From positions 2,156,501 through 2,220,500 of the forward strand of contig NZ_CP045798.1 of NCBI RefSeq assembly GCF_000746025.2: a DNA stretch of 64,000 nt. Reading direction: 5' to 3'. The DNA comes from Thermanaerosceptrum fracticalcis (GTDB lineage: Bacteria; Bacillota; Peptococcia; DRI-13). Positions 24,891-56,263 of this stretch are shown piece by piece. The notes under the pieces are model-generated. The model saw nothing but the letters and a program-made list of their open reading frames with translations, was not told where the DNA came from and ran no database searches. The position numbers were made by a program, and so were the translations under genes. How positions within the stretch are numbered: position 1 is the stretch's first letter; each line of letters starts with the position of its first letter.

Positions 24891-25131
24891 AAAGCTAAAG
24901 GCATTAACCTTTAGCGTAAACGTGTTACAGTTACCCCCTTCCCTGTCCCTGGTGACATAGTGCTCCATCTGATAACGGGCTCATATCAGATGACAGTCCT
25001 GCATTTCTTCAATGCGGTCCCAGCGTGAAACCTTGGCCGGTCTTCCACACTTCGGCGAATGCCCCTTTGGTCCAGTTCCTCGTTGCCACACTCCCGGGAT
25101 TACTCTTGGCGATTCGCGACCCCTACCTCAC
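24885..25131 (-). promoter_or_regulatory. Orphan lysine riboswitch, copy 1
   Basis: Transcribed leftward. The aptamer (25131-24952) has the L-box landmarks GAGGTAGGGGTCGCGA, GCCGAAGTGTGG, CTGGGACCGCATTGAAG, GGACTGTCATCTGA and TGGAGCACTATGTCACC. The terminator stem GCTAAAGG/CCTTTAGC (24894-24915) is followed by a broken T-run. The ancestral promoter is degenerate (-35 GTGACG, -10 TATAAC near 25230-25201) and separated from the aptamer by extra sequence. No intact gene follows. Confidence 0.88.
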
Positions 25132-27350: not shown

Positions 27351-27618
27351 TAAATAACAGCTCCTCTCCTTCTATAGCATTAATTACTTCTCTCTTTGTC
27401 ATCGTCAAAAATTTATACCGTCCTTGTTGCTGCCCCTTTTCTTAACTAGCCAGCATTAACCCAACCTTTCATATAAATTCGAATTATCCTTAGATACTCA
27501 TCGATGAGGACCCCCTTCCTGCTTCTGACCCTGCAACTAGAAGCAGTATATGCATAAAAAAGTTAAAGGTGCAAAGGGAGTCACTTGAAATAACCTTCTA
27601 CAGATTAAGAAATGACTA

Positions 27619-27863
27619 CAAAAAAAGCTAAAGGCATTAACCTTTAGCGTAACCGCTCTGGTTACCCCCCTTCCCTGCCCCTGGTGAGATAGTGCTCCAT
27701 CTGATAACGGGCTCATATCAGATGACAGTCCTGCACTTCTTCAATGCAGTCCCAGCGTGAAACCTTGGCCGGTCTTCCACACTTCGGCGAACGCCCCTTT
27801 GGTCCAGTTCCTCGTTGCCACACTCCCTGGATTACTCTTGGCGATTCGCGACCCCTACCTCAC
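27619..27863 (-). promoter_or_regulatory. Lysine riboswitch controlling dapA
   Basis: Transcribed leftward. P1 is formed by GTGAGGTAG (27863-27855) and CTATCTCAC (27692-27684). Between them lie GGGGTCGCGA, TTCGCCGAAGTGTGG, GCTGGGACTGCATTGAAG and AGGACTGTCATCTGA, the L-box conserved elements. The terminator is GCTAAAGG/CCTTTAGC (27627-27648) with an uninterrupted T7 run. dapA starts about 270 bases beyond it. Confidence 0.95.
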
Positions 27864-30285: not shown

Positions 30286-30339
30286 ATTTAAATTTTGGTG
30301 GAGGTGAACTAATACTCTTAAAAACCCTAACTTTCACCC

Positions 30340-31895: not shown

Positions 31896-32723
31896 TTAAA
31901 AGAGATTAGCAAAGACTATTTCGCGAACTTGTTCACCAGCAAAAGCCACTTTGCCGCTTTTAGCTTGCTGATATACATGGGCCACTTTGTAATAAGGAGA
32001 TATGAACCCGATATTAGATACGGGAATAGTCTTTTGCTCATCGGCCCACACAATTATGAATGTTGGCAATCCTATGAATTGCCCTTTTACATTAAACGCT
32101 CCCCCACCGCTATTTCCGGGGTTAATCGCGGCATCAGTTTGAATCCATTCGTTTCCACCAATCACCCGCTTGCTGCAGGATACAATCCCCGCGCTCACAG
32201 TATCAGTAAAGCCCAAGGGGTTCCCAATACAGAAAACCTTGTCCAAGAGCTTTACTGGCTCATCCGGGAACTCTACCGGCATTAGCAGCCCTGAGTCGGC
32301 AGCAATTTTTAAGATGGCTATATCCTGGCCTAAGTCGCCGTAAAGGACCTTCGCATTAATGTTGGCCGGCAAAGAATCAAGGATAACATTTATTTCCTGA
32401 GAAGGGTCAAGACCATCTAATACGACATGACAGTTAGTTGCTATGTATCCGTCTTTGTCAAGGACGATACCACTTCCAAGCGAAGTGCGTCCATCCTTTA
32501 ATTTTGCCCTTACAGTTACCACAGACGGCAGCAAAGGAGGAATAAGCTCGTACTCGTGGGTTTGGGCCTTCTCGATGAAAGATAATACTTCTGCCCTTTT
32601 GATTAATTCCTCCGGCTTGAAAGTGTTGTCCGGATAGCCGGAAACGGCCTTCTTCTTCAACATGCGCTCAATCAAAGAATAATACCATTTTCCAGGCAAT
32701 ACATCTTTAAACAACTCCAACAC
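31896..32723 (-). CDS. SLH-domain trypsin-like serine protease (HtrA-like)
   Basis: A 275-residue protein. Residues 4-52 form one S-layer homology motif (FKDVLPGKWYYSLIERML, then GYPDNTFKPEELIKRAE). From about 66 there is a chymotrypsin-fold S1C protease with the full triad: H in ATNCHVV, D in GQDIAILK and S in PGNSGGGAF. There is no PDZ domain and no signal peptide. It opens the lysis cassette, behind a terminator-like hairpin. It may reach the envelope at lysis or act on virion proteins. The GTG at 32723 is uncertain. Confidence 0.85.
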   Translation of the reverse strand: MLELFKDVLPGKWYYSLIERMLKKKAVSGYPDNTFKPEELIKRAEVLSFIEKAQTHEYELIPPLLPSVVTVRAKLKDGRTSLGSGIVLDKDGYIATNCHVVLDGLDPSQEINVILDSLPANINAKVLYGDLGQDIAILKIAADSGLLMPVEFPDEPVKLLDKVFCIGNPLGFTDTVSAGIVSCSKRVIGGNEWIQTDAAINPGNSGGGAFNVKGQFIGLPTFIIVWADEQKTIPVSNIGFISPYYKVAHVYQQAKSGKVAFAGEQVREIVFANLF

Positions 32724-32857: not shown

Positions 32858-35800
32858 CTATTTTCTTAAAAAATTTTCTTCGTAAAACTTATTCACAGCT
32901 CGAACAATATCAATCATGTCAGACCGTACTGCTGCAGCTTCCAGGGTCTTATTAGGCCTATCCGACTTCTCGATAAAGTGCAGCGCATCCTCCAGGACAT
33001 CTATAGCCTGAGAGGCTGCATTAAAGACATTATTGACTGCAGCCAATTCCCCAGGCAACTTCTGCCCTTCGTGCAAGCGCCTGTAATCAGCCACCTGAGT
33101 TTCCACCTGCTTCTTATAATCATAAAAATCACTCACCGACTGGGGTTGCCGGTACGCATCTGCCACAAAACCTTGAGAAAGCCCTCCCAGGACCGGAATA
33201 CCAGGCTTGCCTCCGAAAGTCATATCAATGGATTCCAGGAACACCCGGCCTAAAGTACCGGTATACCCTTCTATAAGCCGCTGCAGCCGTTTGGGCGACT
33301 TAAATGCTTCCGGTATTCCCGGCACATCTGCAAGTCCCTCACTGATCTTTCGCACAAGAATACTGGTGTATTCGTTATACTGCAACTCCGGTGAAACCCG
33401 TTTGTCCGATTCGCTTAAAATCGGATTACCGCGCCAATCTCTACCGGTTGCGTCGCGGTAGAAGGGTTCAATGGCAGATGGAATGATCTCAGGGACCAGG
33501 GCTTGATTAATGGTCTGTGCAAACTCCTTCCAGGCATTAGGATTATCCTTTAGGTATTTATCCAGCAACCTTTCCGGAATAGCCCCAAACATAATCCCAA
33601 GCTCCCACGGCCTCGGCACCGGGAAAAACCAGCGTGTAGTTTTTGGGTCCCCAAGGGGTATATTCCAGAAGAAATCCCGGCGCCACCAGGGTAGTTCCCG
33701 GTAATTTTCGTTCTCCCGGGTGAGCCACAAGTTAAATAAGGTGGGAATAGTAATATACAACAGCCCTTTGGCTATGGTACGCCAGGGGTGCTTAGCCAGT
33801 AACCGGCCTACGTTTACTGTCCCTTGGATTGAGGGGTTTAAGAAATTGACAAGCCTGTTAAGCTGTGCACGTCTTACCCAACTACCCATCTTGCGGAAAT
33901 CCACGGAAAGGTTACGCATACGGGCTACATTGCGAGCTATTTCTTCCTGGGGTAGAATCTCAAGGAGCTTTTGCTCATCCATGGCTTTAATATCGGCATC
34001 GGAAAAACCGGCAGCTTTCAGGTATTTTTTCATGCCTTTCTTCATTTCCGCTAACCGTCCCGCCATTTCCCCAGGCTCAATCCAATCCTGGAGGAAGCGT
34101 AAAGGTGTACCAAAGGCTTTAAACCCGGCCCATAATCCCTGCCCCACATAACCTTCTTTTGCCAGGCCCCAGGCCTCGTTTAATTTTAGCACAAACTCAT
34201 GAGCTCTATTGCCGTTAGACATAATCTGGTTAATGGCTTCCTGGGCAAACTCCCGGTCATTGGCTGTAAAATAGTTGGTTGTCCCGCCTTTTCTGGCAGC
34301 CAGTCTATACCACTTATCACCTTTGAGTGCGCTCCAAAATCCCTGGAAAATATCCACAGGGTTTAAGTGGGTATCCGATGAGACTAGGTTATGGAAAGTG
34401 TCCCGGGCGGCGTTGCGGTAAATGAATTGCGGGGTATAGATAATTCCTGTCTTTTGTACCTGGGCGAGATTCATCAGAACCTTAGTCACCAAATTTACAT
34501 TTTCCGGTGTTAGCCCCTTAATAGCCTCATACAGGTCCGGGTGAACATCATAAAGGACGGGCTCTCCATCCCGGTAGACTACCACCTGATTGGGACCGGC
34601 CAGATATTGGGGATTGAATATCCGGGCCATGGTATCCAGGTCCAGGCTATCAACGAATTGTTTAGCGTCGCCGTACACCTCCTCAATACCTTCCATCCCC
34701 TCGAAAACGTCATACAGATACTTCTTAACCTTTTCCAAATTGAACTGTACGGCTTTCAGCTGGACCGGGGCACGTGACATTATCTTGCCTTTACCCTCCG
34801 CCTTATCAGCCATATCGGCCAATTCCAGAAGCAGCCTGTTCCTCATGGCCACACTGCGGTAAATAAAAGTGTTATTAATATCGTTTTCCTCGGGGTCCAT
34901 AATATCTTCCCCGCCGCCCTTTAAACCTTTCACTACCCGTTTGGCTGCGCCAAGTTTTTGACTTGTCCCGGCAACATAGTCAAAAGCCTCTTTAATCCGT
35001 TTTAGGCTTACATAATTGGGGTTTGCCAGTTCAATCTTAGCCTTATCGGCCTTACTGTATATGCCGCCCTGGACCAAAAGATCGTAAGCATTTGACCTGT
35101 ACTCCCTGGTCTTATCAAAGATTTTCTTAAACTCCGGGTGTTTTGCCTCCAGTATGCGAATCTGCTCGTCGTAGGTTTCCGGAGAGTCAGGCATTTCCAG
35201 GCCGCGCTGTAAATAGTCTTTACTACGGCGAGCTATGGAATAAACCCAAAACTCCCGGCGGGTTTGCTCATCCTTGTGGATCGGCTTAGTGATCTCAAAA
35301 TAAGAGGGGCCCACCTTCTTACCATCCAGGTCAGATTGATAATATCCGGGCTCTCCCTTGGGGTTAATGTCGGCCAGAGCTATTCCTTCCCAACCCCGCA
35401 AAGTAGACAGCTCGTTTGCAATCTTCTCCTGAAATACCCGTCCCCCAAGCTCCCCGGCGGCCCATTCCACGGGATAAGTTGCATCCACAATACCGGTATA
35501 GATCTGGCGCAACATCCTGGTCAAGTCCACAGGCGCAGGATAGCGGGGATCGCCTTTAAACCAGACGGATTTCATTCCACGGGCCACAGGGTCCAAATTC
35601 ACCAGGCTATAAATATCCCGGGCAATCATCTCTATAACACCCATTACGTCCCGCGGAATATACTTCTTAATATATTCCGAAAGTTCCGGGTATGCATGTT
35701 CGGTTTTATCCCGGTCCGTGAGATAAAGCCTTATAAACTCAGCAATACCTTCCCGCCGCTGCTTAAACTTAGGATAACTCGGCCTAGAAGTCACCGCACC

Positions 35801-38800
35801 CAAAGCGAGAAGATCGCTATCTATCTTTGCCGCTCCGGCACCCAGGCGTTTTTTGATTGTAGTAATCTCTGACAAAGTATAGAGCTTATCAAAGTAATGG
35901 CCTGCTTCATGAGAAAGTGTTGCCAGGTCGTTAGCCTTAGCAATCCTGGTTATGTGCGTTCTGTTGTCGAACTGACCAAGACGGGACCAATGAATACCAC
36001 CTTTTTTTACGGCCATCTCCAGTTTCTTTTCAAAATCCTTGACGATTTCAGAGGCCCTTTTCGCTTTTCCCGTTGTATTCTTACCAGTAGCGGGACCTAC
36101 TCCAGTCTGCCCCAACTTACTGGTAAGCCCTTCCGTATCCCTTTTACCCTCATATTTTTTGGCTACCTCACGCTTGGCATCCAAATACTCAAAATTAGGT
36201 AAAACTTCAACTCCTTCCAAGGTGGTTGTACCATAAGAAAGGTTATCATCAATCACCAGTTCAATTTGCTTGGCCAGCGCTACGTTTTCTTGCCCGTTAT
36301 CATTGATAATGCGCTTCAGGGCTTCCTCCACCTCACCAGGACTAGCTCCCGTAAGCTGCATTATTCTTTCCAAGGGCTTACTTGTAAGGCGTTTCGTACC
36401 AGTAGTGATCCTTTCCCCGTACTGGTTAACAGTAGAAAACCGCTTACCTTTAATTGATTGAGTCAATTCTGTAAGCAGCCTAACGGCCTCTGCCTGAATA
36501 AACTCCTTCAACTCAGGATGTTCGTACATATAGGCTTTTATGCGCCGATCGCCTACATCCTCGATGGTCCTGTCATCAATGGGAATACTAATCTCTTTTG
36601 CTTTATTTGAAAGTTGCTCATCTTTAAACCAATCTGGCAAATACTTCCTATCGTGTCCCTTGATAGTTGAAAGCAGGTCTGTTAAACTGATCTCAGAGAG
36701 ATCTCCTAGCGTACGTAACCCATTTGACCCTTCAGGGTCATTAGGCCGTGCTAAGATGGACGATCTCTCTATATTTATATTTGTGGCCAAATGGTCATAA
36801 TACTTTTTGCCGTCATGGTACTCCTTGACTATTAGCTTTGCATTATACAACTCATCCCCTATTTGCAAAGCGCCATAAAAAACATGGACCATCTTCCCAT
36901 CATGCTTATTTTTGGGTGGAACCGACGCCACCTTGACCGCTTCCCTTAAAAGATCCGGGAGGGCGAGGGCGGCAACAATCTGGGGTTTACCTCCGTGGCT
37001 AAACCCGTGCTTAAGCCGCCTTTCGGTAATAAGTATTTCATAGCCTGTGTCTTTATTTTTATATGTTTTATTGAAAAAGGGCTTTAAGAGCTCCCGCGCC
37101 TGGGCCCTCATCACGGCAGGTTCACCGTCAAGGATTTCATTCCCGTTAAGTCTAACCACTTTTATAGGTGGTTTTTTCAATACCTCTTCCTTAGACAAAA
37201 AAGCTGCTTCCACTGCTTCCTCGGCCTCTTGCCCAATATCCCCGGGAGCCTTTTTCGTTTTCGGTTCCCCCTGGGCAGGAAACAACCGCATATAAGTGGC
37301 CAGGATCGGGTCGAAATCATCGTCCTTAACAGCAAACCGCGGTTGCCCTTCATAAAGGACCGCCTCTTTCATAAGGGGAGTTATCGGAAGCGAAAGCTGT
37401 TTTCCCCCCTCAATCCATACTTCTTCTACCCTTGCACCCCACTTTTTCCCGTACCTGTTTAGAAAATCAGGGATCATCTTGTCGTAGAACCCCTTCATTC
37501 CCTCGCCGCCGACTTTGAGGTCAAGATCCGTCAAAACCCCGTTTTGAGTACTATTGAGCGCATCGGCATGAGCAAGAGCATCCTTTTTCATAGAATAAGA
37601 TTCCACGACTTCACCGCCAGGTCCGACAACGTCAAAAATCTTGTCTGTCTTTCCGACCTTCTCGCGGTTGAAAACAACTTTGTATTCTCCTTTTCTGCCT
37701 TCACCGTTGATGATCTTAGCAGCGATTTCTTTCCCGACAAAATTTTCTAATTCGGCGGCTTCAACCACTTTGTGCATGATTTGATGATCAAGCTTATCGA
37801 AAGCTTTTAACATATAAGAATCATCGTTTTCGATCTTTGAATACTCTATTCTGCTAACCTGCTTGCTCAGATTATACCTCTCAGCCTGCTGTTCCCCTGT
37901 GGTCCAGGCTATCCTGTCAAAGCCGTTTTCGGCAGCATAGCGGAGCATCCGCTTTAAGACAAACTCATGCCAATTTTTACTGAAAGGGGCTTCAGGGACA
38001 CTGCCGGTCATCTGCCAAGCACGCTCGACAGCCTGTTTTTTGGCCTCCGGACCTATATCCTTGGAAACCTTAATCTTTTCAGCTCCATATAAAATATGAT
38101 CAACAACCCAATAATCCTCGGTCTCCCTAAGAGAAAAACCTTCGGGCAGTCCGTCGCCAATATAACCCTTCTTTCTTCCAGTTTGGTGCCAGTCAGACTG
38201 TACTTCCTCCAGGAAAAGAATCCTTTCACCATCTGGGCCAATGCGTTCATTAAACCGAACATGAGCTAGAACATTTGGTTCCTCCCAATGGGAAGATTGA
38301 TATACGGGTCCCGCCCTAGCAATTTGTTCCAGAGACATATTATCTATGTCTTTACCAAAATCAAACGGTAAAACAAGCAGCAACTCGCGGTAGTCTTTAC
38401 CTCCAGGTTCCTGAAAAGATGAATACCTTGGCTTTAAAGGAATCTCAACAAAGCTTTCATATGCCTCTCTAGCTTTTAAATAATCTTCTGCCAAGTTTCT
38501 GAGATTTTCAGGAATCTCCGATATTTTTATTCTTCCATCAGTTAATTTATTGGGGAGATTATAAGCATCTAATTGAGACATGCCGCTCTTTAGTGCTTCT
38601 TGAACAAATAAAGAATGTACTCTGTTTGCTTCATCCAAAGCGGCCTTATATGCCCGATATTCTTGTTCTGTACTCATTATTTCCTCTACTTCGATTTGAT
38701 GGCTCCTGATCCAGTTCAATACTTCCTGCTTGGTAAGTTTCCCACCCTTAGCCAGAAGATCGTCCATACCAGTCCATTTCATTTCATCGGCTTTGACTCC

Positions 38801-41800
38801 ATTTTTCTCGATGATAGAACGGACCATTTCCACCGGGGCAATATTAGGCATTTTCTCCTGAATCACTTTTTCCAATTGAGAGTAAAAGGGAGGAGCGTAC
38901 TCTTTAACAGAGTAAGAGGTTTTTTTAGCTGATTCTTTGCCTTTTACACCTTCAAAAGCCTTCTCCCAGTCGCCCCTTGCGAAGGCCTCAGCCTGGGTTT
39001 TGATATTTTCCGCAAGATTTTTCTCTACGTTTTTCCGGAAATAAGTAAGCCTTTTAATAATCTTCTGAACCCATTCCTTGAACCGCTTTATCATTTCCGC
39101 AAAATAGGATTTTCCTTCGCTTTGGAAATCGTCCCGGCTCATAGCATAATCAGCAATAATCTCGGAAAGGTGTTCCTCGGCCCGATCCTTGTCAAGCCCA
39201 CGTTCCACCAGGAAATTAATTGCCTTCTCATAGTCCTCCATATTTGACATTTGCCACATACTGGTCCAAAGTTCCGCATATTCGTGAATGATCTCCTGGG
39301 TAATCGGCATGTTCGGGTTGGCCAAAAGCTCAATGGAAGTCCTAAAAGCAGCCCCGCGCTTCTCTATCATGGCTTTACCTGCAATATACGCCTTGCTACC
39401 TTCTTTTAGTCCGTGGGCCTTGAGTAACTCAGAGGTTATTTCATCAGTGAACATATTAGTAAAGTTAACAATGTGCTCTACGTCTAAACCGGCTTTCTTG
39501 GCTCCTTCAAGGTATTTTTCCGTCATCTCCAGGATTTTTTTCTGCTCTTGCTGGTCTATGCCGTATTCCTTCATGAAAGTTCTAACCCTCTCAAGGGGTA
39601 GTTCGGAGAGATCAGTTTTAGCATGTAAACCTCTCGCTCCATCAAGAGCATTGGTCCATGCTCCAACGGCTGATCTCTCTATTTTTGTTGCCTTATGGTC
39701 ATACAGTTCTCCATCCAGAGCAACGTGAATATCGCTCTCTATCACTTCATCAACAGGTTTTAAATACTCTACATAATTTTTAGGGGTACTGCCGGTCATA
39801 CCATTATCAGCAATCCATTGAATAGAATTTTCATCTTTTTTGACAACTTTTACTCGTTTAGGCTTATCACTGAATGTTTCTTTAAGAACCATGCTAAATT
39901 CGCTTGCCTTAGTTGTTACCGTTTCACCCCTTAGCAACTTAGGGCTAACACTATTAAATATCTTGCTAAACTCCTTGGCATCCATTTCAGGTTTTAAAGC
40001 CCTGTCTTTTACAAATTGACCATATGCAGTTTGCGCTGAGTATCCTTTAGCCTTATAATCAGCAGCTAAATCCTCAGCACTGGCAGTCAATCTTTCCGGG
40101 GCATAACTAGAAACAACAACCCTCTCAACCTGTTCATTGGATTGAGGAACATCAATTTTAACCGTATCACCGGCCTTAACAAGCCCTTTTCTCTGTTCGA
40201 TAATTTTCGTCCCCGCCTCGGGAGATTGCTCAAAAGCTCTTATTTCAGGTCGTACTTCGGCTTTAATTTCTGGCTCTGGTAATAGTCTTTTGCCTCTGGA
40301 GATAGGAATAACTTTGCCAGTGGCTTGTTCCGCTCCTTCTACAGCCTGGGCGAATACGGTGTTAGGATCCTGGTCTCTATTCTTGCCGCCTCTGCCGCGC
40401 ATTTGCTTGAAATAATTCGGGTCCTTTGCGCCCATGGCCAATTCTTTGGGCGTGAGCTTACGACCGATCTTCTTTTCGGTAAGGTAAATATCCGACTTGA
40501 ATACAGCCAGACCATTAATATTTACCATTTCGCGCTTCGTATCAATATGCGCGTCTGTGACAGGATCAGTTTTCACCCATATACCTATCCCTTTTTTAAG
40601 TTCTTTATAACCCTGTTTTTTTAGTTCTTTAGCCGTATAGCTTTTATCAAAAACAGTAACCGGGCCGGAATACGTCCCAAAACCGGCCTGAGCTCCTTCA
40701 TGGAATCGTTCCTCATTGCTTTTCTTCACACTGGACAATTCCAAAACATCGACCGGGATCCCTAACAAAGCGGAAACAACAGCACCGCCACCAAAAGCCA
40801 TAGCTAATTCATCAGCAGTAGGCATAGGAGCATTGGGGTCATAATAATATCGCTTGATAAACGGTTCAAGCAGTTCAGCCACTATTTCTTCCGTTCCTTC
40901 ACCAAATATATTAGCCACCCTTTTAACTGCCGCTTGGCCAACGGGAGACTTAATATACTTCTCTACAAGTTTTTCCGGGCTTAAAACACCTTTCCCCATG
41001 CCGGGAATACCGCCAAACAGCCGTTCAATAGCGACTTCTTTAATCCCGCTTGTCATTCCGGCTTTTCTAGCTGTCTGAATATCCGCGCCGCTTTGTAAAG
41101 CCTCACCGGCGGCATTTCCCGCTGCCATGCCGTATAATAGCTGTGTGCCTATAAGCGGAGACAAAGCATGAGCCGCAGCAATAGGAGCCACTTGCCCAAC
41201 TGTGCCGACCAGTTCACTTGTAACCTGCTGCCATTTAGGCAGGTGGGCATATTCTTCATTCAAAGCCTGTCTTTCCAGCGCGGATTGTTCTTGTAGATCC
41301 AACACTTGCTGGACAAGAGAGTCTCGGCTTGCAGTTAGTTTTTTTACTGCTTCAGGATCATACTGCTGCGCTTTGATACCAAAAATACGGGAAAGGATTG
41401 GATGGTTTTTCTCAAAATTTAGAGCCTCGTCTATGCCGGAAGCTAATTCCGCTCCTTGGGCCGAAGATAACCCTCTTTGAAAGGTTTTAAAGCCTTGCAT
41501 AATGTTTTTGGCTATTGCGGAAAGGAAACCTGGCTTATTATCAGTTCCAGCAGGTACGGCAGGCGAAAAACTACTTGTATCAACAGGCTTGAATGATGGT
41601 TCCATGCCAGCCCTCATCTTGGCCCAAGAAGGTATATCTGATATCTGCGGTTTCTGTATTTCCGGGTCCTTGATTTTTTGATCCAATTGACGGGCAAAAT
41701 CTTCGCTCCCACCAAGCAGTTCCTTTTCCTGGCGTTGTATATCCTGCCATTCTATCTTCGGCATAGTGGCAGCTTTCCGCTGCGCTATAATATCATCACC

Positions 41801-41905
41801 GGTTGGATACGCACCAGCACCAAATTGGGCTTTTGCTTTTCTCTCGGCAATTATTTCATCACCAGTTTTGCCAGTGATAATTCTACTTTTATTTTTTTGG
41901 GCCAT
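32858..41905 (-). CDS. Giant polyvalent phage protein (3015 residues), presumed ejected internal virion protein
   Basis: It combines several modules seen in large polyvalent phage proteins. An amphipathic hydrophobic stretch lies near 225-270. A PFYSQLEKVIQEKM/KWTGMDDLL region is at about 1000-1070. A module at about 1185-1490 carries EEVQSDWHQTGRKKGY, AWTTGEQQAERYNLS and GGEGMKGFYD. An LPD3/nuclease-like region is at about 1595-1710 (YEILITERRLKHGFSHGG). HEAGH at 1999-2003 is a zincin motif, and an LPD38-like C-terminal third starts near 2440. Such proteins are thought to enter the cell with the DNA. Its neighbour is a 416-residue coiled-coil protein, probably also internal. Confidence 0.85.
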   Translation of the reverse strand: MAQKNKSRIITGKTGDEIIAERKAKAQFGAGAYPTGDDIIAQRKAATMPKIEWQDIQRQEKELLGGSEDFARQLDQKIKDPEIQKPQISDIPSWAKMRAGMEPSFKPVDTSSFSPAVPAGTDNKPGFLSAIAKNIMQGFKTFQRGLSSAQGAELASGIDEALNFEKNHPILSRIFGIKAQQYDPEAVKKLTASRDSLVQQVLDLQEQSALERQALNEEYAHLPKWQQVTSELVGTVGQVAPIAAAHALSPLIGTQLLYGMAAGNAAGEALQSGADIQTARKAGMTSGIKEVAIERLFGGIPGMGKGVLSPEKLVEKYIKSPVGQAAVKRVANIFGEGTEEIVAELLEPFIKRYYYDPNAPMPTADELAMAFGGGAVVSALLGIPVDVLELSSVKKSNEERFHEGAQAGFGTYSGPVTVFDKSYTAKELKKQGYKELKKGIGIWVKTDPVTDAHIDTKREMVNINGLAVFKSDIYLTEKKIGRKLTPKELAMGAKDPNYFKQMRGRGGKNRDQDPNTVFAQAVEGAEQATGKVIPISRGKRLLPEPEIKAEVRPEIRAFEQSPEAGTKIIEQRKGLVKAGDTVKIDVPQSNEQVERVVVSSYAPERLTASAEDLAADYKAKGYSAQTAYGQFVKDRALKPEMDAKEFSKIFNSVSPKLLRGETVTTKASEFSMVLKETFSDKPKRVKVVKKDENSIQWIADNGMTGSTPKNYVEYLKPVDEVIESDIHVALDGELYDHKATKIERSAVGAWTNALDGARGLHAKTDLSELPLERVRTFMKEYGIDQQEQKKILEMTEKYLEGAKKAGLDVEHIVNFTNMFTDEITSELLKAHGLKEGSKAYIAGKAMIEKRGAAFRTSIELLANPNMPITQEIIHEYAELWTSMWQMSNMEDYEKAINFLVERGLDKDRAEEHLSEIIADYAMSRDDFQSEGKSYFAEMIKRFKEWVQKIIKRLTYFRKNVEKNLAENIKTQAEAFARGDWEKAFEGVKGKESAKKTSYSVKEYAPPFYSQLEKVIQEKMPNIAPVEMVRSIIEKNGVKADEMKWTGMDDLLAKGGKLTKQEVLNWIRSHQIEVEEIMSTEQEYRAYKAALDEANRVHSLFVQEALKSGMSQLDAYNLPNKLTDGRIKISEIPENLRNLAEDYLKAREAYESFVEIPLKPRYSSFQEPGGKDYRELLLVLPFDFGKDIDNMSLEQIARAGPVYQSSHWEEPNVLAHVRFNERIGPDGERILFLEEVQSDWHQTGRKKGYIGDGLPEGFSLRETEDYWVVDHILYGAEKIKVSKDIGPEAKKQAVERAWQMTGSVPEAPFSKNWHEFVLKRMLRYAAENGFDRIAWTTGEQQAERYNLSKQVSRIEYSKIENDDSYMLKAFDKLDHQIMHKVVEAAELENFVGKEIAAKIINGEGRKGEYKVVFNREKVGKTDKIFDVVGPGGEVVESYSMKKDALAHADALNSTQNGVLTDLDLKVGGEGMKGFYDKMIPDFLNRYGKKWGARVEEVWIEGGKQLSLPITPLMKEAVLYEGQPRFAVKDDDFDPILATYMRLFPAQGEPKTKKAPGDIGQEAEEAVEAAFLSKEEVLKKPPIKVVRLNGNEILDGEPAVMRAQARELLKPFFNKTYKNKDTGYEILITERRLKHGFSHGGKPQIVAALALPDLLREAVKVASVPPKNKHDGKMVHVFYGALQIGDELYNAKLIVKEYHDGKKYYDHLATNINIERSSILARPNDPEGSNGLRTLGDLSEISLTDLLSTIKGHDRKYLPDWFKDEQLSNKAKEISIPIDDRTIEDVGDRRIKAYMYEHPELKEFIQAEAVRLLTELTQSIKGKRFSTVNQYGERITTGTKRLTSKPLERIMQLTGASPGEVEEALKRIINDNGQENVALAKQIELVIDDNLSYGTTTLEGVEVLPNFEYLDAKREVAKKYEGKRDTEGLTSKLGQTGVGPATGKNTTGKAKRASEIVKDFEKKLEMAVKKGGIHWSRLGQFDNRTHITRIAKANDLATLSHEAGHYFDKLYTLSEITTIKKRLGAGAAKIDSDLLALGAVTSRPSYPKFKQRREGIAEFIRLYLTDRDKTEHAYPELSEYIKKYIPRDVMGVIEMIARDIYSLVNLDPVARGMKSVWFKGDPRYPAPVDLTRMLRQIYTGIVDATYPVEWAAGELGGRVFQEKIANELSTLRGWEGIALADINPKGEPGYYQSDLDGKKVGPSYFEITKPIHKDEQTRREFWVYSIARRSKDYLQRGLEMPDSPETYDEQIRILEAKHPEFKKIFDKTREYRSNAYDLLVQGGIYSKADKAKIELANPNYVSLKRIKEAFDYVAGTSQKLGAAKRVVKGLKGGGEDIMDPEENDINNTFIYRSVAMRNRLLLELADMADKAEGKGKIMSRAPVQLKAVQFNLEKVKKYLYDVFEGMEGIEEVYGDAKQFVDSLDLDTMARIFNPQYLAGPNQVVVYRDGEPVLYDVHPDLYEAIKGLTPENVNLVTKVLMNLAQVQKTGIIYTPQFIYRNAARDTFHNLVSSDTHLNPVDIFQGFWSALKGDKWYRLAARKGGTTNYFTANDREFAQEAINQIMSNGNRAHEFVLKLNEAWGLAKEGYVGQGLWAGFKAFGTPLRFLQDWIEPGEMAGRLAEMKKGMKKYLKAAGFSDADIKAMDEQKLLEILPQEEIARNVARMRNLSVDFRKMGSWVRRAQLNRLVNFLNPSIQGTVNVGRLLAKHPWRTIAKGLLYITIPTLFNLWLTRENENYRELPWWRRDFFWNIPLGDPKTTRWFFPVPRPWELGIMFGAIPERLLDKYLKDNPNAWKEFAQTINQALVPEIIPSAIEPFYRDATGRDWRGNPILSESDKRVSPELQYNEYTSILVRKISEGLADVPGIPEAFKSPKRLQRLIEGYTGTLGRVFLESIDMTFGGKPGIPVLGGLSQGFVADAYRQPQSVSDFYDYKKQVETQVADYRRLHEGQKLPGELAAVNNVFNAASQAIDVLEDALHFIEKSDRPNKTLEAAAVRSDMIDIVRAVNKFYEENFLRK

Positions 41906-41915
41906 ACAATCACCC

Positions 41916-43166
41916 CTATTTGCTGTTTAAGATTTTTTCCAATATCGCTACAGCTTCATTTTTGGGCAAGAAACCAGCCAGCGTCTTTAATTCTTCGGGA
42001 TCCAACCACTGAGCATTTTGCCTTAGCCATTTCTCAGGATCGCCGCTATTCATCATAGATGAATATAAAGCCCCAATTGTTTTAGGGTTCTTCATATTCG
42101 CAGGATTGGTCGGGTCTTTTTCCCAATTAAACTTATCCCTTGCCAAAGCGGCATTTCTTTCGGCAATGCTTATTTCTCTATTCCTGAGAGCCTGTGCAAC
42201 CAAATCCTGCTTCTTCTGATAATCAAACTGATCCAGCCAGCGCTGATCAAGGAGTTTGTCCCTACTGACTTGATAATTATATTCTTGCTGTTTTTGAGCA
42301 AAGTTTCTATTACTTTCCAGGACAGATTGATTAAACGCTCTGTCGGTTGAATAGCGCTGGTAGTCGGCGTTTTGCAGGCTAGATAAAAGGTTGATCTGAT
42401 CCATCGTTAGCCCTTGCTCCTGCAGGTAACGGTTATAGGCCGCTTGTGTAAGTGACGGGAGCAATTCATTAAGCCTGTTTTTCACATCAGATTCAGATTC
42501 TTTGGCCGCCGCTATCGCATAAGAGCTAGGAATGCCGCCTGTCAAGGAGGAAGCAGCACCCAAAACATTCTGTGATGTTTTCTTGCTTTCATTCTCAATT
42601 CTTTCCTTGGCTGCCAGGTATTCAGGACTACTATATACAGAATTGGGGTTAAAAGCTGGAATTGAATTAAGCTTTGCCAATAAAGCTTCTATTTTAGAAG
42701 AATAAGGACTTTGATATACTCCTGAAACAGCAGGGGCAGCCGGAGCATTTACGCCAGGTATGCTTCCCACCAAATAAGATTGCCCGTTATAATTAAAATA
42801 CTGATTTCCCTGCTGGTCTCTGGAAAGGCTGCCCATACTCCCCCGTGCTGCTTCGGGAATAGTTTCGTCTGCTATCCTGTACTGCTGCCCGTTTGAAACA
42901 TACCACTTGGACCCGTCTTGTTCGGTGGTTATATATCCTCCATATGACGGTGTAGGACTGCTTCTACTTGCTGTCGTTTGAGAAATTGTTTGAGATGTCG
43001 TTTGAGAAGAAGCAGGCGTGTATACCTTATCTAAACTAAACCCAGGATACTGCTGAGCATAAACCTGCGCCTGCTGAGCCGCCCATTGCGCTTTTCCAAA
43101 ATCTTTTTCAGCATTTTTAATTAAATCTACGAGATATTTCCTTTCATTTTCCAGATCAAGAGCCAT
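41916..43166 (-). CDS. Probable internal virion protein, Gln/Ser-rich coiled coil
   Basis: A 416-residue protein without a recognised domain. It has a helical N-terminus (1-40), a Ser/Thr-rich linker (TSQTISQTTASRSS), two short repeats around an NGQxY motif (VSNGQQYRI, NYNGQSYLV), then about 200 residues of predicted coiled coil rich in Q, N and R. Position directly before the giant protein, 10 bases apart, suggests a short-tail or ejection component. Confidence 0.6.
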   Translation of the reverse strand: MALDLENERKYLVDLIKNAEKDFGKAQWAAQQAQVYAQQYPGFSLDKVYTPASSQTTSQTISQTTASRSSPTPSYGGYITTEQDGSKWYVSNGQQYRIADETIPEAARGSMGSLSRDQQGNQYFNYNGQSYLVGSIPGVNAPAAPAVSGVYQSPYSSKIEALLAKLNSIPAFNPNSVYSSPEYLAAKERIENESKKTSQNVLGAASSLTGGIPSSYAIAAAKESESDVKNRLNELLPSLTQAAYNRYLQEQGLTMDQINLLSSLQNADYQRYSTDRAFNQSVLESNRNFAQKQQEYNYQVSRDKLLDQRWLDQFDYQKKQDLVAQALRNREISIAERNAALARDKFNWEKDPTNPANMKNPKTIGALYSSMMNSGDPEKWLRQNAQWLDPEELKTLAGFLPKNEAVAILEKILNSK

Positions 43167-46188: not shown

Positions 46189-47508
46189 TTAAATGGCAGT
46201 GTAGATAGTGAAGGACACTTTGTGCCTAACATCCCCTGGATATGTGCCGCTAAGGTTACGGTAAACTGTAAAGTCTCCAATTGAAATATCATTCAGGTTC
46301 AAAGTGGTTGTAGTGCTGTAAGAAGCGTTAATGTCAGACCTATTCATAATCTGATAGTTTCCATTCACCGCCGTAATGGTCACGGTGCCAGCAGCGCCAG
46401 CATCACCAGCGGCCACATCATAAGCATAAAATTGGGTAATGTTAAGCAGGGAGTTTGCTGGTGCGGTATAGGTATTCGTACCATTTCCTGCGTACTCCAC
46501 ATGCGTTGTCGTTTTGGAAAACTTGGTAGTATCGTTGAGCGTCGATAGCTTGGATATAATGGCGCTTCTGGCTGTCGCAGAAGCAGCCATAGCGTTCCTT
46601 GCAGTTGACGATTTAAGAGCTATATTCATGGCCGTCGCCGAGGCAGCTACCGCATTCATGGCCGTCGCCGAGGCAGCTACCGCATTCATGGCCGTCGCCG
46701 AGGCAGCTACCGCATTCATGGCCGTCGCCGAGGCAGCTACCGCATTCATGGCCGTCGCCGAGGCAGCTACCGCATTCATGTCGGCGTAATCAGCCGGGTT
46801 GAGGCCAGCCTCACCGGCCACGAACTTACCTATCGCCATGTTGGAACCGGCCACGATGTTGAAGGCAGTGGAGCTATTACGGATAGCGTTTCTGGCCGTC
46901 GCCGAGGCAGCTACCGCATTCATGGCCGTCGCCGAGGCAGCTACCGCATTCATGGCCGTCGCCGAGGCAGCTACCGCATTCATGGCCGTCGCCGAGGCAG
47001 CTACCGCATTCATGTCGGCGTAATCAGCCGGGTTGAGGCCAGCCTCACCGGCCACGAACTTACCTATCGCCATGTTGGAACCGGCCACGATGTTGAAGGC
47101 AGTGGAGCTATTACGGATAGCGTTTCTGGCCGTCGCCGAGGCAGCTACCGCATTCATGGCCGTCGCCGAGGCAGCTACCGCATTCATGGCCGTAGCCGAG
47201 GCAGCTACCGCATTCATGGCCGTCGCCGAGGCAACTACCGCATTCATGGCCGTAGCCGAGGCAACTACCGCATTCATGGCCGTAGCCGAGGCAACTACCG
47301 CATTCATGGCCGTAGCCGAGGCAGCTACCGCATTCATGTCGGCTAAACTCTTAAATTCATCAAACGCTGGCCCTATTAGGTGACGTAATAGCTTACCAGT
47401 TTGCGAGTTAGCATCTGCGACAGCAAACGCGTCAACGATGTTGTTCCCTATTAGGCCAGCCACCAGGTTGCCAGCCAGGTCTCCTCCAAGCGGTACAAAT
47501 ATAGACAC
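46189..47508 (-). CDS. Decapeptide-repeat phage fibre protein
   Basis: A 439-residue protein. A short N-terminus (~57 residues) precedes three blocks of the decapeptide [10 protein letters not shown] (7, 4 and 5 copies with A/V variants), separated by two identical spacers that include [20 protein letters not shown]. The C-terminal ~115 residues are beta-rich ([18 protein letters not shown]) and could form a tip domain. Similar 10-residue repeats occur in phage fibres and probably form a regular trimeric shaft. GTG start after GGAGGTAG. Confidence 0.75.
46621..47340 (-). repeat. 30-bp coding repeats with 234-bp higher-order duplication
   Basis: The 30-bp unit GCCGTCGCCGAGGCAGCTAC+CGCATTCATG recurs at least 16 times with few substitutions. 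A larger unit, starting at ATGTCGGCGTAATCAGCCGG (46778 and 47012), repeats at a 234-bp distance. Near-identity at the DNA level indicates recent expansion and likely length instability. Confidence 0.93.
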
Positions 47509-49598: not shown

Positions 49599-50903
49599 TT
49601 AGTTAGCGCCACTTTCAAATGGCGTACATACCTCGTTCCGAACCATATATTCCTGCACGAGTATTTCCGCTACTTTAGTAGCCTTCCAGCCGGAAGTTGC
49701 GCGCTGGTTGAGCGGGTCGGCAGTACCGGCAGAACCAAGCTGTTTAATGATGGTTTCTAGGCCGCCACCTTCTACCTCGGTTACGCCATAAGCATTTTTC
49801 CCGATGAAAAGCACTGAATATACATCGCGGCCTTTAGCGCCGGCTTCGCCAGGATAGATAATGTCACTGGCAGCAGGATCATGAGTAGGAGTTTCGCTGA
49901 TAGTAATAGTTGCACTTCCCGCGCTCCCGGCAACCGCACTGGCGACAGTATACAAATACCCGTCAACAATAATCTTCCTGCCAACCAAAGCTGCGGCATC
50001 GGTGGACGATAACGCCTCAGTAATAGTAATGACTTTAGAAGCATATGAAGATACAGTCAACGTCCTGGTGGTCGAGGTTAAATCAGCCGCATGGAATATC
50101 TTCGCCTCAGTCGTCTCCACGAAACGCACACCATGAATGCGGCCAATCTCTCCAGCGAAAATGTTTTCGGAACCGGCATATTCGTTGGCGCTCACCCACT
50201 CGTCATCTTTGGTAAGGCTGTATACCACATCGGGATGGACAATTGCCACGTAGTTTTTGCCATCCACCGGCTGAGCTTTCCCATTTTTCAGGGTCCGCAC
50301 TCCTAGGCGAACATTTTCCACTCCGAAATAATCATTTCCGGAGGCTTCCCCGCCTACAAGCAAGTAACGCGCCAAGCGGTTGCCCTGGCCGTAAATGACG
50401 TTGGTCCCGCCGTTAATAATGTCCCTGACGACAGTATCCAGGGTTTCTCCCGCTTGATTCCCCAAAAGCTCCGTAGCTTGCACTAGGTTGTCGTCAATGG
50501 CGGTCAACTCCAGCATATCGGAAATAGTGATATAGTCGCCAAACTGGCTAACCGTCGCTTCAACCGTGGTGACATTCAGGCTCTTGCCCTGGGGAGTAAC
50601 GCCCTCAGTCAAAGGAGTAAGAGCTTTGGGCAGCGGGCTGTACTTCCGAAACTCAATGGTTTTGCCCTTATTCTTCGGAATGGGCTTCTTCTGGCCAAAT
50701 TGATCATGGACCAGCTTCGGCTTTGCATTGTCGATCAGGTACATATCATAATAAGTTTTCATTTCCGGGGACAGGTCTTGCCCTGTGCCGGTCTGCGTGG
50801 TCGTGTTTACAGGTCCAGGGACCGTATCAAACAATCTCAGATTGGTAGTAAACAATTTGAACGGGCTGATAAAAAGCCCAGGAATACCGGCAAATTGATA
50901 CAT
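49599..50903 (-). CDS. Major capsid protein, N4-gp56 family
   Basis: A 434-residue HK97-fold capsid protein of the N4-gp56 type: KTYYDMYLIDNAKPKLVHDQ followed by FGQKKPIPKNKGKTIEFRKY, then LTEGVTPQGKSLNVTTVEAT and ISDMLELTAIDDNLVQATEL. ATG 50903 follows AAGGAGGGATT; the upstream in-frame extension is dropped. Residues 21-26 read NLRLFD, like the Prp cleavage motif of ribosomal protein L27, and the scaffold has a matching site. Cleavage would release a 25-26-residue leader. Confidence 0.9.
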   Translation of the reverse strand: MYQFAGIPGLFISPFKLFTTNLRLFDTVPGPVNTTTQTGTGQDLSPEMKTYYDMYLIDNAKPKLVHDQFGQKKPIPKNKGKTIEFRKYSPLPKALTPLTEGVTPQGKSLNVTTVEATVSQFGDYITISDMLELTAIDDNLVQATELLGNQAGETLDTVVRDIINGGTNVIYGQGNRLARYLLVGGEASGNDYFGVENVRLGVRTLKNGKAQPVDGKNYVAIVHPDVVYSLTKDDEWVSANEYAGSENIFAGEIGRIHGVRFVETTEAKIFHAADLTSTTRTLTVSSYASKVITITEALSSTDAAALVGRKIIVDGYLYTVASAVAGSAGSATITISETPTHDPAASDIIYPGEAGAKGRDVYSVLFIGKNAYGVTEVEGGGLETIIKQLGSAGTADPLNQRATSGWKATKVAEILVQEYMVRNEVCTPFESGAN

Positions 50904-50942
50904 ACAAAATCCCTCCTTGATTTTTTTGTTTGTCAAGAAGGG

Positions 50943-52992: not shown

Positions 52993-54834
52993 TTATACTG
53001 CAGGTCCTCCCTGTTGTTTTAGCAATTCCTCGCCGCCCAAAAGTCGGATAATCTCCCACATCTTGGCCATTTCTTGTTGCATGGCCGTCGTTTGTTGCTG
53101 GAATTGCTGCAGCAGGTCGCCATTCTCGGCTATTTTCTGCAATATAGTTTCTTTGCCCTCGAAGTTCATCATTTCCAAGGCAATTTTAGCTTCAGGCGCG
53201 CGTTGCGGAGCGAACATGCCTATCTGGAACATCTCTTTAGCCATTTCGTTGTACAAAACGGTTGAAAACGGGGATTTCTTCTCTGGTACAATCGTCACAT
53301 CAAAAACCGGTTTCCTGTATTTCGGCCGGTAGTTTTTGTCCTGGATGAATGTCTGGGTATCAAGATCAAATATCATGCCTTCATTCGGGTATGCTGGAGG
53401 TAGTGGCTGAGGAACAATACCGGCATTAGTATACGTCACATATTGATATTGACCATTCTGGCCGGTGATACGGAAATCCCTTTCCTTATCATAGAACTGC
53501 CTAACCAGCTCGATGGTTTTATAAACCATGCTGGTCAGGTTTTCATACGTCATGCCTATCATATCCCTCGACAATTTATTCCCGGCCTCTTGCAGGGCAT
53601 ATATCGCCCTGGCCGCCGTCACGCCTTTCCCGCCTTCGCCACTTGCAAACACGTCATTGGCAGTGATCTCTTTCATCTCTTGGATTTTGTTTTGCCTATG
53701 CTGCGCGATGAAAGGATCAAGCGGCTTGGCTTGGAACATACGGATATATTCTTCATTTAACGGGCCATCAACTTCAATGATGTCTTTCGAAAAATCAACA
53801 ATATCATCCTTCGATACCGAACCGCCGCGCTTAATAAACCAGCGCATCTTCCCAGCAATCAAGGCGTTTTTGGATATAATCTGATCAAGTTTGTCAATAT
53901 ACATCTGCGGATTCTTGGCCAGGTCTACCAGCCCAAAACCGGTCGGATAGCCTTCCTCAGGGAACAGAACATCGAAATCCACAGGATATTCGCCGTGGTC
54001 ATATATGCCACGGTCTTTGTATTGTTCGTCCTCCATGCTGTTGTAAAGGACCGTGCTGCCCACAAACTTGACCAGGTGCAGTTGTATCCGCCCGTCATTC
54101 CCGCGCCGGCGCATATACCAGTCCACAACTACACTTTTTTTGGTGATGTCTATATGGTCGTCATATGCGTACTGCTTGGGGTCTATAATCCGTTTGCCCT
54201 TGATGATAGTAGTATCATCAAGTATGTTGGCATAAGTGTCGGCCAGGACTTCATCATCTTCCAGTCCTATGATAAAGAAATTGCTCCCGTCCTGGATATC
54301 CTTCACTCCCGGCTGCCAGGCCAGATTAAGAAGATCAAGCCTTGTCACAACTATATCGCCCATCCCCTCCAGCTTCTCCGCATCCCAGAATTGGCCATAT
54401 GGCACGCAGCCATTCAGTAGCTTGTACCACCAACCATTTGCATACGTCCTGCGGAAGCGGTTGGAATCATATATTGCTGGGATGATTTTTGACAGCATCT
54501 CAGCTTCTTTTTTGTCAGCTTCTTTCCGCGGCAAAACGTTGAACGAAGGATAATTGTCCATCGCGTCTGCGTGTTTATTTGCGATCATGTTGAAAAGATA
54601 CATAGTGACAGGCTCCGGGTCGTTTTTTCGAAGCTGGCTTCGGAATAAATCCCAATGCCGCCCCTTCCACCACTTGTGATTCTCGATGATCCGCTGGTCA
54701 AGCTGCTCTTTGCCGGCAAAATACTCCTTCAGTATTTTTGCCCCCTCAATTGCAAGGTCAATGTCCGTAGAAGTGTTCTTTTTGGCCTTCTCGATTGATA
54801 CATTATAGCCAAAAACGCTAATCTTTCTTGGCAT
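52993..54834 (-). CDS. Portal protein
   Basis: A 613-residue protein with a portal-type N-terminus (EGAKILKEYFAGKEQLDQRI, then ENHKWWKGRHWDLF), a central stem/wing region (YPVDFDVLFPEEGYPTGFGL) and a Gln-rich coiled C-terminus. It forms the dodecameric DNA channel at the head vertex. Size and order after TerL support this. It resembles portals of short-tailed and N4-gp56-capsid phages. Confidence 0.87.
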   Translation of the reverse strand: MPRKISVFGYNVSIEKAKKNTSTDIDLAIEGAKILKEYFAGKEQLDQRIIENHKWWKGRHWDLFRSQLRKNDPEPVTMYLFNMIANKHADAMDNYPSFNVLPRKEADKKEAEMLSKIIPAIYDSNRFRRTYANGWWYKLLNGCVPYGQFWDAEKLEGMGDIVVTRLDLLNLAWQPGVKDIQDGSNFFIIGLEDDEVLADTYANILDDTTIIKGKRIIDPKQYAYDDHIDITKKSVVVDWYMRRRGNDGRIQLHLVKFVGSTVLYNSMEDEQYKDRGIYDHGEYPVDFDVLFPEEGYPTGFGLVDLAKNPQMYIDKLDQIISKNALIAGKMRWFIKRGGSVSKDDIVDFSKDIIEVDGPLNEEYIRMFQAKPLDPFIAQHRQNKIQEMKEITANDVFASGEGGKGVTAARAIYALQEAGNKLSRDMIGMTYENLTSMVYKTIELVRQFYDKERDFRITGQNGQYQYVTYTNAGIVPQPLPPAYPNEGMIFDLDTQTFIQDKNYRPKYRKPVFDVTIVPEKKSPFSTVLYNEMAKEMFQIGMFAPQRAPEAKIALEMMNFEGKETILQKIAENGDLLQQFQQQTTAMQQEMAKMWEIIRLLGGEELLKQQGGPAV

Positions 54835-54850: not shown

Positions 54851-56263
54851 CTATGCTCTCATAAAGCCGTAGTGATCTCTAACTGGCTCAGTATCTAATG
54901 GGTTGTATGGCTGCTCTGTAATACCCACACTTGGCGGTGCTGGTATCGGGTTATCCATAAATAGGTATCTGGCCTCATCGTAGCAGTGGTCCTCTCCAGA
55001 TGTATCCACATCCTCTACATCATGATCATCATAAACGAGCGTTGGGATCGTGCGATTGAAGCCCTTGTTCCAGCTAAAGCTATACATCATGGGATAACCG
55101 TTCTCATCAAAAGTCAAGCGGTAGTGAAACTGCATTTTGCCGGGAATACGTTTATTATCGCCCGGCTCCCAATACACGCCATAATTTTCAAAAGTCCAAG
55201 CTATACTTTCTCCGGTGTCACGCTGGAATATGGCCGGATCTGCAATTCCACGGAAGTGTATGCCCTTGTAATATTTGTCCTCAATCTCCTTTATCTTTTC
55301 CGCAACCTGTCCAGGGGTCCAGCGCAGGCCCCGGTCAGGTTCATTGGTGCAGCCGTAAAGCTCGCGCTCGCGGTATAGCCGCCCGTCATGGTCCATAGCC
55401 CACCAACCGACGGAAAACGGCCTTGTATAGCCCCAGTCCAGCGTCCGAAACCGTTTCCACTCGCGTGGGACAAGAAACGGGCTGATAACATGCGTCCATT
55501 GGCGGTCCTTGTAATGGGTTGGGTCATCTCTCCACTCAACAAATACCTGGCCCTGGAAAGTGTTCCAATCACCAAACAGCAGGGCCTTTCTTTCTGCCTC
55601 CGGGAGCTGTGCCAGAGCTGCAATATAGTTGGGGTCGTTATTGAGGAGAATCGGGTTATCGAACACTGTGGCCGGGATAAATACCCGGTCTTTAACATAC
55701 TCCCTACCGGCGACTTTTACCCTGGCTATGTATCTCTTAAAAGGCTGCATTGATAAAATAAACCGTTGTTTTACCCATCCGTGACCAATTCCACCAGGGT
55801 TTCCTGTAGCCGCTATGCTTACGTGAGTCCCTGGGCCCCCTGGCCGGTTACGAGAAAACATATAGGAGTATTCGTCCCATGTAAAATGCGTAAGCTCGTC
55901 AAAGTTTATTTCATCGAATCGCTTCCCCTGATATTTAAGCCGGTCCTTCTTGTGCTGCATTGAACCAAAGTAAACCTTGGCACCAGAGGGGAAGGTCCAG
56001 ACGTGCTTGTTGTCATTGTATTTGGCCGCAGGAAAAGCCTTCTTATAAAGCTCAAGACTCCTGTCAATGAGCTGTGACGCTTCCGGGAAGGTTTTACGGA
56101 AAATGATGGCCCGGAAATGCGGGATATGTACCTGTCGTAACGGTCTAACAATGATGGCGTCCGATTTCCCGCCACCGGCAGCCCCACCATAAAACACCTC
56201 TGATTCAGGACGGGAAAGGAAAATGCGCTGCTTTGGCTGTGGGGTCCATATTACTTTAGCCAC
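54851..56263 (-). CDS. terL: Terminase large subunit
   Basis: A 470-residue packaging motor. Walker A is at about residue 26-34 (GGAAGGGKS), Walker B is FDEINFDELTHF, and the coupling motif is AATGNPG. The RNase-H-like nuclease part begins near LDWGYTRPFSVGWWAMD, with a later acid in IADPAI and a C-terminal DDHDVEDVDT stretch. It overlaps the small subunit gene by 13 bases. Confidence 0.93.
   Translation of the reverse strand: MAKVIWTPQPKQRIFLSRPESEVFYGGAAGGGKSDAIIVRPLRQVHIPHFRAIIFRKTFPEASQLIDRSLELYKKAFPAAKYNDNKHVWTFPSGAKVYFGSMQHKKDRLKYQGKRFDEINFDELTHFTWDEYSYMFSRNRPGGPGTHVSIAATGNPGGIGHGWVKQRFILSMQPFKRYIARVKVAGREYVKDRVFIPATVFDNPILLNNDPNYIAALAQLPEAERKALLFGDWNTFQGQVFVEWRDDPTHYKDRQWTHVISPFLVPREWKRFRTLDWGYTRPFSVGWWAMDHDGRLYRERELYGCTNEPDRGLRWTPGQVAEKIKEIEDKYYKGIHFRGIADPAIFQRDTGESIAWTFENYGVYWEPGDNKRIPGKMQFHYRLTFDENGYPMMYSFSWNKGFNRTIPTLVYDDHDVEDVDTSGEDHCYDEARYLFMDNPIPAPPSVGITEQPYNPLDTEPVRDHYGFMRA

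What the first reader, a model, noticed from the sequence alone, without database searches (positions are those of the whole stretch)
32858..41905. 3015-residue polyvalent internal protein with zincin motif and several modules
One open frame of 9 kb joins a membrane-active-looking stretch, a domain with EEVQSDWHQ and GEQQAERY blocks, an LPD3/nuclease-like region, a HEAGH metalloprotease motif (1999-2003) and an LPD38-like end. It sits where short-tailed phages keep ejection proteins. It may deliver several enzymatic activities, perhaps anti-defence functions, with the DNA.
Basis: partly seen in the sequence, partly recalled or inferred. Interest (0 to 1): 0.65.

Follow-up and report, generated by a model that had tools for sequence, protein, structure and literature searches.

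The report
Giant multi-enzyme phage injection protein
A dormant virus in this bacterial genome encodes a 3015-residue protein, probably packed in the virus particle and pushed into the next cell with the DNA; it joins a conserved tail-end module to a metal protease and to an uncharacterised, very widespread domain that is predicted to have an acetyltransferase-like fold.

Summary
One ATG-started, ribosome-site-preceded frame of 3015 codons lies on the minus strand at 32858-41905, and every motif is at the stated residues. It belongs to a 39-kb short-tailed-type prophage integrated at the tmRNA gene. It is a phage-type polyvalent protein: Pfam LPD3 and LPD38 (7), a class described by Iyer et al. 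2017 (PMC5512222). New detail: (i) residues 2164-2960 form a block that is C-terminal in relatives, with a conserved hydrophobic helix and weak structural likeness to T7-type core protein gp16. (ii) The HEAGH domain is an intact zincin, nearest in fold to the anthrax lethal factor catalytic domain; a zincin motif precedes this block in 37 of 124 non-redundant relatives. (iii) The EEVQSDWHQ/GEQQAERY region is one GNAT-fold domain with unusually rigid polar conservation, found in at least 434 viral contigs and matched by no Pfam family. A second zincin-like site (HEYAE, 874) appears degenerate. The LPD3 'nuclease' reading gained no support. A relative with LPD3 and LPD38 was found by mass spectrometry in purified JC1 virions (PMC9144972). 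Packaging, cleavage and effector targets here are inferred.

The parts
32858..41905 (-). 3015-aa polyvalent protein gene (with stop codon)
   Evidence: ATG at 41905, AGGGGTG site upstream, coupled to the gene ending at 41916
41911..41917 (-). ribosome-binding site AGGGGTG
   Evidence: read directly
40751..41218 (-). residues 230-385: N-terminal region with two hydrophobic segments; relative in another genome of the same class (L003/L006)
39272..39286 (-). residues 874-878 HEYAE: degenerate second zincin-like motif about 178 residues before the GNAT-fold module; in relatives HExxH or HExxxH often occurs at this place
   Evidence: low-confidence model there
37325..38896 (-). residues 1004-1527: GNAT-fold domain with large insertions (EEVQSDWHQ/GEQQAERY domain), no Pfam family
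38183..38209 (-). residues 1233-1241 EEVQSDWHQ; Q1236 and D1238 invariant in 95 sequences
36797..37108 (-). residues 1600-1703: LPD3 (PF18798)
   Evidence: E 2.2e-20
36185..36589 (-). residues 1773-1907: segment shared (39% identity) with a giant prophage protein of another genome of the class
35648..36046 (-). residues 1954-2086: zincin metalloprotease domain
   Evidence: fold; motifs
35897..35911 (-). residues 1999-2003 HEAGH active-site motif; E2052 (EGIAE) is the likely third zinc ligand, D2006 the clade-specific Asp
33026..35416 (-). residues 2164-2960: conserved C-terminal block, proposed ejection-channel (gp16-like) module
33719..33775 (-). residues 2711-2729: conserved hydrophobic, possibly membrane-spanning helix
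   Evidence: 92% of 61 relatives have KD17 above 1.2 here
33209..33709 (-). residues 2733-2899: LPD38 (PF18857)
   Evidence: E 2e-37
41916..43166 (-). 416-aa protein just upstream, low complexity and coiled-coil-like, possible second internal protein
   Evidence: weak match to an unknown phage family
43888..45198 (-). tail or internal virion protein
   Evidence: phrog_511, E 1.8e-38; weak match to Bacillus phage Pascal gp14
49599..50936 (-). major capsid protein
   Evidence: phrog_1357, E 3e-85
52993..54834 (-). portal protein
   Evidence: phrog_156, E 7e-57
54851..56263 (-). terminase large subunit
30296..30307 (.). attL core TGGTGGAGGTGA; second copy at the tmRNA 3' end (genome 2226094, window coordinate about 69594)

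Best explanation
It is a phage-type polyvalent internal virion (ejection) protein of a short-tailed-type prophage. The C-terminal 800 residues, with LPD38 and a conserved hydrophobic helix, are the structural module that places the protein in the virion and, on infection, helps carry DNA across the membrane, working like T7 gp16. The N-terminal 1950 residues are cargo that differs between phages: a hydrophobic N-terminal region, a decayed zincin, a GNAT-fold domain with an invariant polar centre, and LPD3. The intact zincin sits at the border between cargo and the C-terminal module and most likely cuts the polypeptide, freeing cargo in the head or in the cell. Shown here: gene, architecture, prophage context, motif and fold assignments, position and conservation of the C-terminal module. 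Inferred from relatives: virion packaging. Inferred only: ejection through the tail, membrane insertion, self-cleavage, chemistry and targets of the GNAT-fold domain and LPD3.
For: Structural cassette with terminases, portal, capsid, tail fibres, M23 peptidase, and no tape-measure or sheath gene seen. C-terminal block found at the C-terminus in 204 of 204 3'-complete relatives, median 82 residues after it, while N-terminal length in complete frames runs from almost nothing to 3102. Pelagibacter phage HTVC034P has a relative between an internal-virion-like gene and the tail fibre, as T7 gp16. JC1 gp69 (LT-like domain, LPD3, LPD38) gave 51 unique peptides from CsCl-purified virions (PMC9144972). 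Three T7-type core/ejectosome proteins appear among the structural hits at residues 2161-2544 (7eyb_I, 8vb2_A, 9vvp_W; Z 4.5-5.1). Zincin: lethal factor catalytic domain ranks 1-3 (best Z 7.8, 86 residues, rmsd 2.7, 21% identity), with HExxH+D and EGxAE conserved. Zincin motifs just before the C block: 37 of 124 non-redundant relatives versus 1.5 expected from shuffles and 82 of 721 control stretches of the giants. GNAT fold: Z 9.6 over 146 residues, nearly all top rows GNATs. Polyvalent class with zincin self-processing proposed by Iyer et al. (PMC5512222).
Against: No sequence-profile link to T7 gp16 (hhalign probability 0.1%); the gp16-like structural scores are below the level that can be trusted alone. 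No peptidoglycan-cleaving domain found in the protein. Foldseek alone gave no PDB match at E below 0.001 for either model. No relative covers the whole protein. No expression, particle or processing data for this prophage. The host is of a Gram-positive lineage by inference, where the membrane-crossing problem differs from that of T7.
Confidence: 0.72

Rival explanations
1. Mainly a host-takeover or anti-defence effector (DarB-like): the C-terminal block only serves to pack it in the head, as in P1 Dar proteins, and takes no part in DNA passage.
For: Annotations 'DarB-like' and 'DNA methylase' for relatives; JC1 authors call gp69 antirestriction; other giants with the C block carry ddrB-ParB, ART-PolyVal, RadC, DnaJ or methyltransferase domains.
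Against: No helicase, methylase or ParB domain in this protein. The C block is present in relatives with widely different cargo and with little N-terminal sequence, and it lies in the gp16 slot of T7-like phages.
Confidence: 0.3
2. The zincin is an effector that cuts host proteins and not the polyprotein itself.
For: Nearest fold in the PDB is the lethal factor protease domain, which cuts host-cell proteins. Iyer et al. leave this open.
Against: Zincin motifs of different types recur just before the C block, which fits cutting at the border between cargo and anchor. P1 DdrB is processed before packaging (PMC5512222).
Confidence: 0.3
3. A decaying prophage gene with no current function.
For: One zincin-like site has lost its second histidine (HEYAE).
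Against: 3015 codons without a stop; intact active-site motifs in the second zincin and invariant residues in the GNAT-fold domain; intact-looking structural genes, integrase, repressor and a matching 12-bp attachment core.
Confidence: 0.06

Closest known systems
Phage-type polyvalent proteins (Iyer et al. 2017, PMC5512222)
   Same: Several unrelated domains in one polypeptide, zincin metallopeptidase, LPD3, LPD38, next to virion genes
   Different: Contains a GNAT-fold domain outside Pfam that does not obviously match the two RimI-like GNAT families described there
Burkholderia phage JC1 gp69 (4515 aa; PMC9144972)
   Same: LPD3 and C-terminal LPD38 in a giant protein of a podovirus; shown in purified virions
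   Different: Has a lytic transglycosylase-like domain and helicase/methylase-like regions that were not found here; compared through its published domain table only
Vibrio phage 1.183.O gp15 (2707 aa) and Thalassomonas phage BA3 giant
   Same: Zincin with HExxHxxD and EGFAEF directly followed by the C-terminal block
   Different: Only 23-24% identity over that part; different N-terminal cargo with a methyltransferase-like domain
T7 gp16 (ejection protein, core stack)
   Same: Gene position in relatives, size of the C block, C-terminal hydrophobic helix, weak structural likeness
   Different: No detectable sequence relation; no transglycosylase domain found here
Mycobacterium tuberculosis ICL2 C-terminal GNAT-like domain (8g8k, 9obo)
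   Same: Best structural match of the EEVQSDWHQ domain, Z 9.5-9.6
   Different: 11% identity; the phage domain has long insertions and its own invariant H, R, Q, D, W, Y residues

Membership tests
Phage-type polyvalent protein | Several unrelated domains in one polypeptide, including LPD or zincin domains | tested here: met
Phage-type polyvalent protein | Encoded among late virion genes of a phage or prophage | tested here: met
Phage-type polyvalent protein | Packed in the virion and injected | not testable with these tools
   Only a precedent: JC1 gp69 in virions (PMC9144972)
Zincin-like metallopeptidase of polyvalent proteins | HExxH motif plus downstream Glu ligand | tested here: met
   HEAGH 1999-2003; E2052 of EGIAE aligned in relatives
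Zincin-like metallopeptidase of polyvalent proteins | Asp three residues after HExxH (common phage-type clade) | tested here: met
   HEAGHYFD; same in L236, L242, L161, L163, L157
Zincin-like metallopeptidase of polyvalent proteins | Conserved His at the end of strand 2 | tested here: inconclusive
   His in GGIHW here, but F or Y at the aligned place in relatives
Zincin-like metallopeptidase of polyvalent proteins | Zincin fold | tested here: met
   Lethal factor protease domain ranks 1-3, best Z 7.8 over 86 residues; Z alone is borderline, the motif agreement supports it
T7 gp16-type ejection protein | Sequence relation to gp16 | tested here: not met
   hhalign probability 0.1% with a 17-sequence gp16-C profile
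T7 gp16-type ejection protein | Fold of the C-terminal core domain | tested here: inconclusive
   7eyb_I, 8vb2_A, 9vvp_W at Z 4.5-5.1
T7 gp16-type ejection protein | Hydrophobic (putative membrane) helix near the C-terminus | tested here: met
GNAT superfamily | GNAT fold | tested here: met
   Z 9.6, 146 residues, nearly all top rows GNAT
GNAT superfamily | Q/RxxGxG/A acyl-CoA phosphate loop after strand 4 | tested here: inconclusive
   R/K1244-K-K-G1247-Y is 98-99% conserved at R/K and G, but lies after a short helix and is followed by an insertion; the last G/A is variable
BECR/PBECR nuclease (for LPD3) | Profile relation to PBECR2 | tested here: inconclusive
   hhalign probability 0.9%, shallow six-sequence profile

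The most novel reading that the evidence does not exclude
The EEVQSDWHQ domain is an undescribed enzyme family on a GNAT scaffold, carried into cells by a very large number of phages, whose invariant H-x-R, E-x-Q-S-D, R, GGxGM and Y-D residues form an active site that modifies a host molecule or the incoming DNA; and zincins inserted just before the LPD38 block cut cargo from the ejection channel during infection.
Probability: 0.3. Interest if true: 0.7.

Novelty: new member of a known kind. Interest (0 to 1): 0.5.

Why it matters
Giant injected phage proteins are common, but what their parts do is mostly unknown. The data suggest a general plan: one C-terminal ejection-like module, a protease at its border, and exchangeable cargo. 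They also give a predicted fold for a conserved cargo domain that occurs in hundreds of viral contigs and has no Pfam entry. Both can be tested with an existing E. coli phage (PTXU04 carries a HExxxH motif and the C-terminal block).

Tried and rejected
Reading LPD3 as a BECR nuclease: no support from profile comparison with PBECR2. EEVQSDWHQ domain as LPD23: rejected; in plasmid p382 LPD23 lies more than 1000 residues away from it. Sequence homology of the C block to T7 gp16: not found. First zincin-like region as an active enzyme: HEYAE lacks the second His and the model is poor there. Searches that gave nothing: PDB by sequence; Foldseek PDB at E below 0.001 for both models; viral contigs with the whole protein or with single C-block sequences. 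Initial domain borders for 'Z1' ran into the GNAT module and were redone. The 416-aa upstream protein did not match the equally long gene in Bacillus phage Pascal. Residues 1-230, 400-784 and 1710-1939 were not modelled.

Full report
Observation. The window holds one frame of 3015 codons on the minus strand, 32858-41905, with ATG at 41905, an AGGGGTG ribosome site 5 bases before it, and the stop of the preceding gene overlapping that site. Pfam finds LPD3 (1600-1703) and LPD38 (2733-2899) and nothing else of weight; PHROGs finds three giant phage families without assigned function or named after a distant domain.

Setting. Reading along the minus strand, the cluster runs: terminase small and large subunit, portal, probable scaffold, major capsid protein, BppU-type tail fibre, repeat-rich fibre, tail and internal proteins, the giant, a trypsin-like protein, M23 peptidase and a possible holin. 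No tape-measure or sheath gene was seen. The right end has a repressor-like gene and a serine integrase next to the tmRNA gene; the 12-bp TGGTGGAGGTGA at the tmRNA 3' end recurs at window 30296, so the prophage is about 39.3 kb and the giant about 23% of it.

Relatives. No record covers the whole protein. In 55 phage records the matches are to the C-terminal part (Vibrio, Bacillus, Pelagibacter, Escherichia and other phages), to the EEVQSDWHQ domain, or to LPD3. In Pelagibacter phage HTVC034P the relative lies between an internal-virion-like gene and the tail fibre, the position of gp16 in T7. In HTVC028P the EEVQSDWHQ domain is a separate gene just before a 'putative internal virion protein'. 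JC1 gp69, a 4515-aa podovirus protein with LPD3 and LPD38, was found in CsCl-purified virions with 51 unique peptides (PMC9144972).

C-terminal block. 224 frames with this block were gathered. Where the 3' end is complete the block ends a median of 82 residues (at most 225) before the stop, and N-terminal length varies from almost nothing to 3102 residues; a few of the shortest may be frameshifted or partial. A hydrophobic helix at 2711-2729 is kept in 92% of 61 relatives. AlphaFold gave a mostly helical model (mean pLDDT 79.8, pTM 0.73). Against the PDB the stretch 2161-2544 aligned with three T7-type core or ejectosome proteins (7eyb_I, 8vb2_A, 9vvp_W, Z 4.5-5.1). These Z values are weak for a helical protein, and hhalign found no sequence relation to gp16. 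So 'works like gp16' is the proposal; 'is a gp16 homologue' is not shown. Against predicted viral proteins it matches many LPD38 proteins.

Zincin. Residues 1954-2086 match the catalytic domain of anthrax lethal factor best (ranks 1-3, Z 7.8), as Iyer et al. reported for this superfamily in N4 (PMC5512222). HEAGH, the Asp three residues on, and E2052 agree with relatives. Just before the C block 37 of 124 non-redundant relatives have HExxH or HExxxH, against 1.5 in shuffles; the same motifs occur in 82 of 721 stretches of the giants in general, so the place is enriched about 2.6-fold even among these zincin-rich proteins. The residues around the motif differ between relatives, which may mean repeated insertion at this place. 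About 180 residues before the GNAT-fold module 27 of 90 relatives have such a motif; here it reads HEYAE and is probably inactive.

GNAT-fold domain. Residues 1004-1527 have at least 434 relatives in viral contigs, 31 in genome contigs and 5 in plasmid records. Neither this domain nor those of the further relatives scanned matches a Pfam family above its cut-off. The model is confident over most of the domain and nearly all top structural matches are GNAT proteins, first the C-terminal domain of M. tuberculosis ICL2 (Z 9.6, 146 residues); Foldseek alone did not reach significance. In 95 sequences at about 30% identity H1215, R1217, Q1236, D1238, P1307, W1312, R1319, G1337 and Y1474 never change, and many others change in under 5%. 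Such rigidity points to a catalytic centre. The usual acyl-CoA loop is not clearly present, so the chemistry is open.

Mechanism. The protein is made late, packed with the head or core by its C-terminal block, and ejected at infection; the block helps DNA across the membrane, the zincin frees the cargo, and the cargo domains act in the new cell. Gene, context, architecture and folds are shown here; packaging rests on relatives; the rest is inference.

Novelty. The class is known. What appears new is the GNAT fold of a widespread unlisted domain, the enrichment of zincins at the cargo border, and the structural hint that links the LPD38 block with T7-type core proteins. Whether the domain is among the unnamed LPDs of Iyer et al. 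could not be checked, as their supplementary alignments were not held.

Noticed in passing
window 46189-47508 (-): Tail-fibre-like protein made largely of tandem [10 protein letters not shown]-type repeats; may vary in copy number.
   Followed up: partly
window 31896-32723 (-): Protein with an S-layer homology domain and a trypsin-like protease domain directly downstream of the giant, inside the prophage; could act on the host surface or on virion proteins.
   Followed up: partly
window 30296-30307 and L324:6094-6105: Prophage ends: serine integrase at the 3' end of the tmRNA gene with a 12-bp core.
   Followed up: yes
window 24657-24968 and 26469-27350: A small frame repeats a stretch of the dapA product ([14 protein letters not shown]) preceded by TLKVNAFSF, which occurs again at 27537-27716; duplicated fragments around dapA.
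   Followed up: no
L383 (plasmid p382), 1-10803: Giant protein with ten ART-PolyVal stretches, LPD23 and the GNAT-fold domain on a Pseudomonas plasmid.
   Followed up: partly
L012:4757-11920: Dolichospermum phage giant with two copies of the EEVQSDWHQ domain.
   Followed up: no
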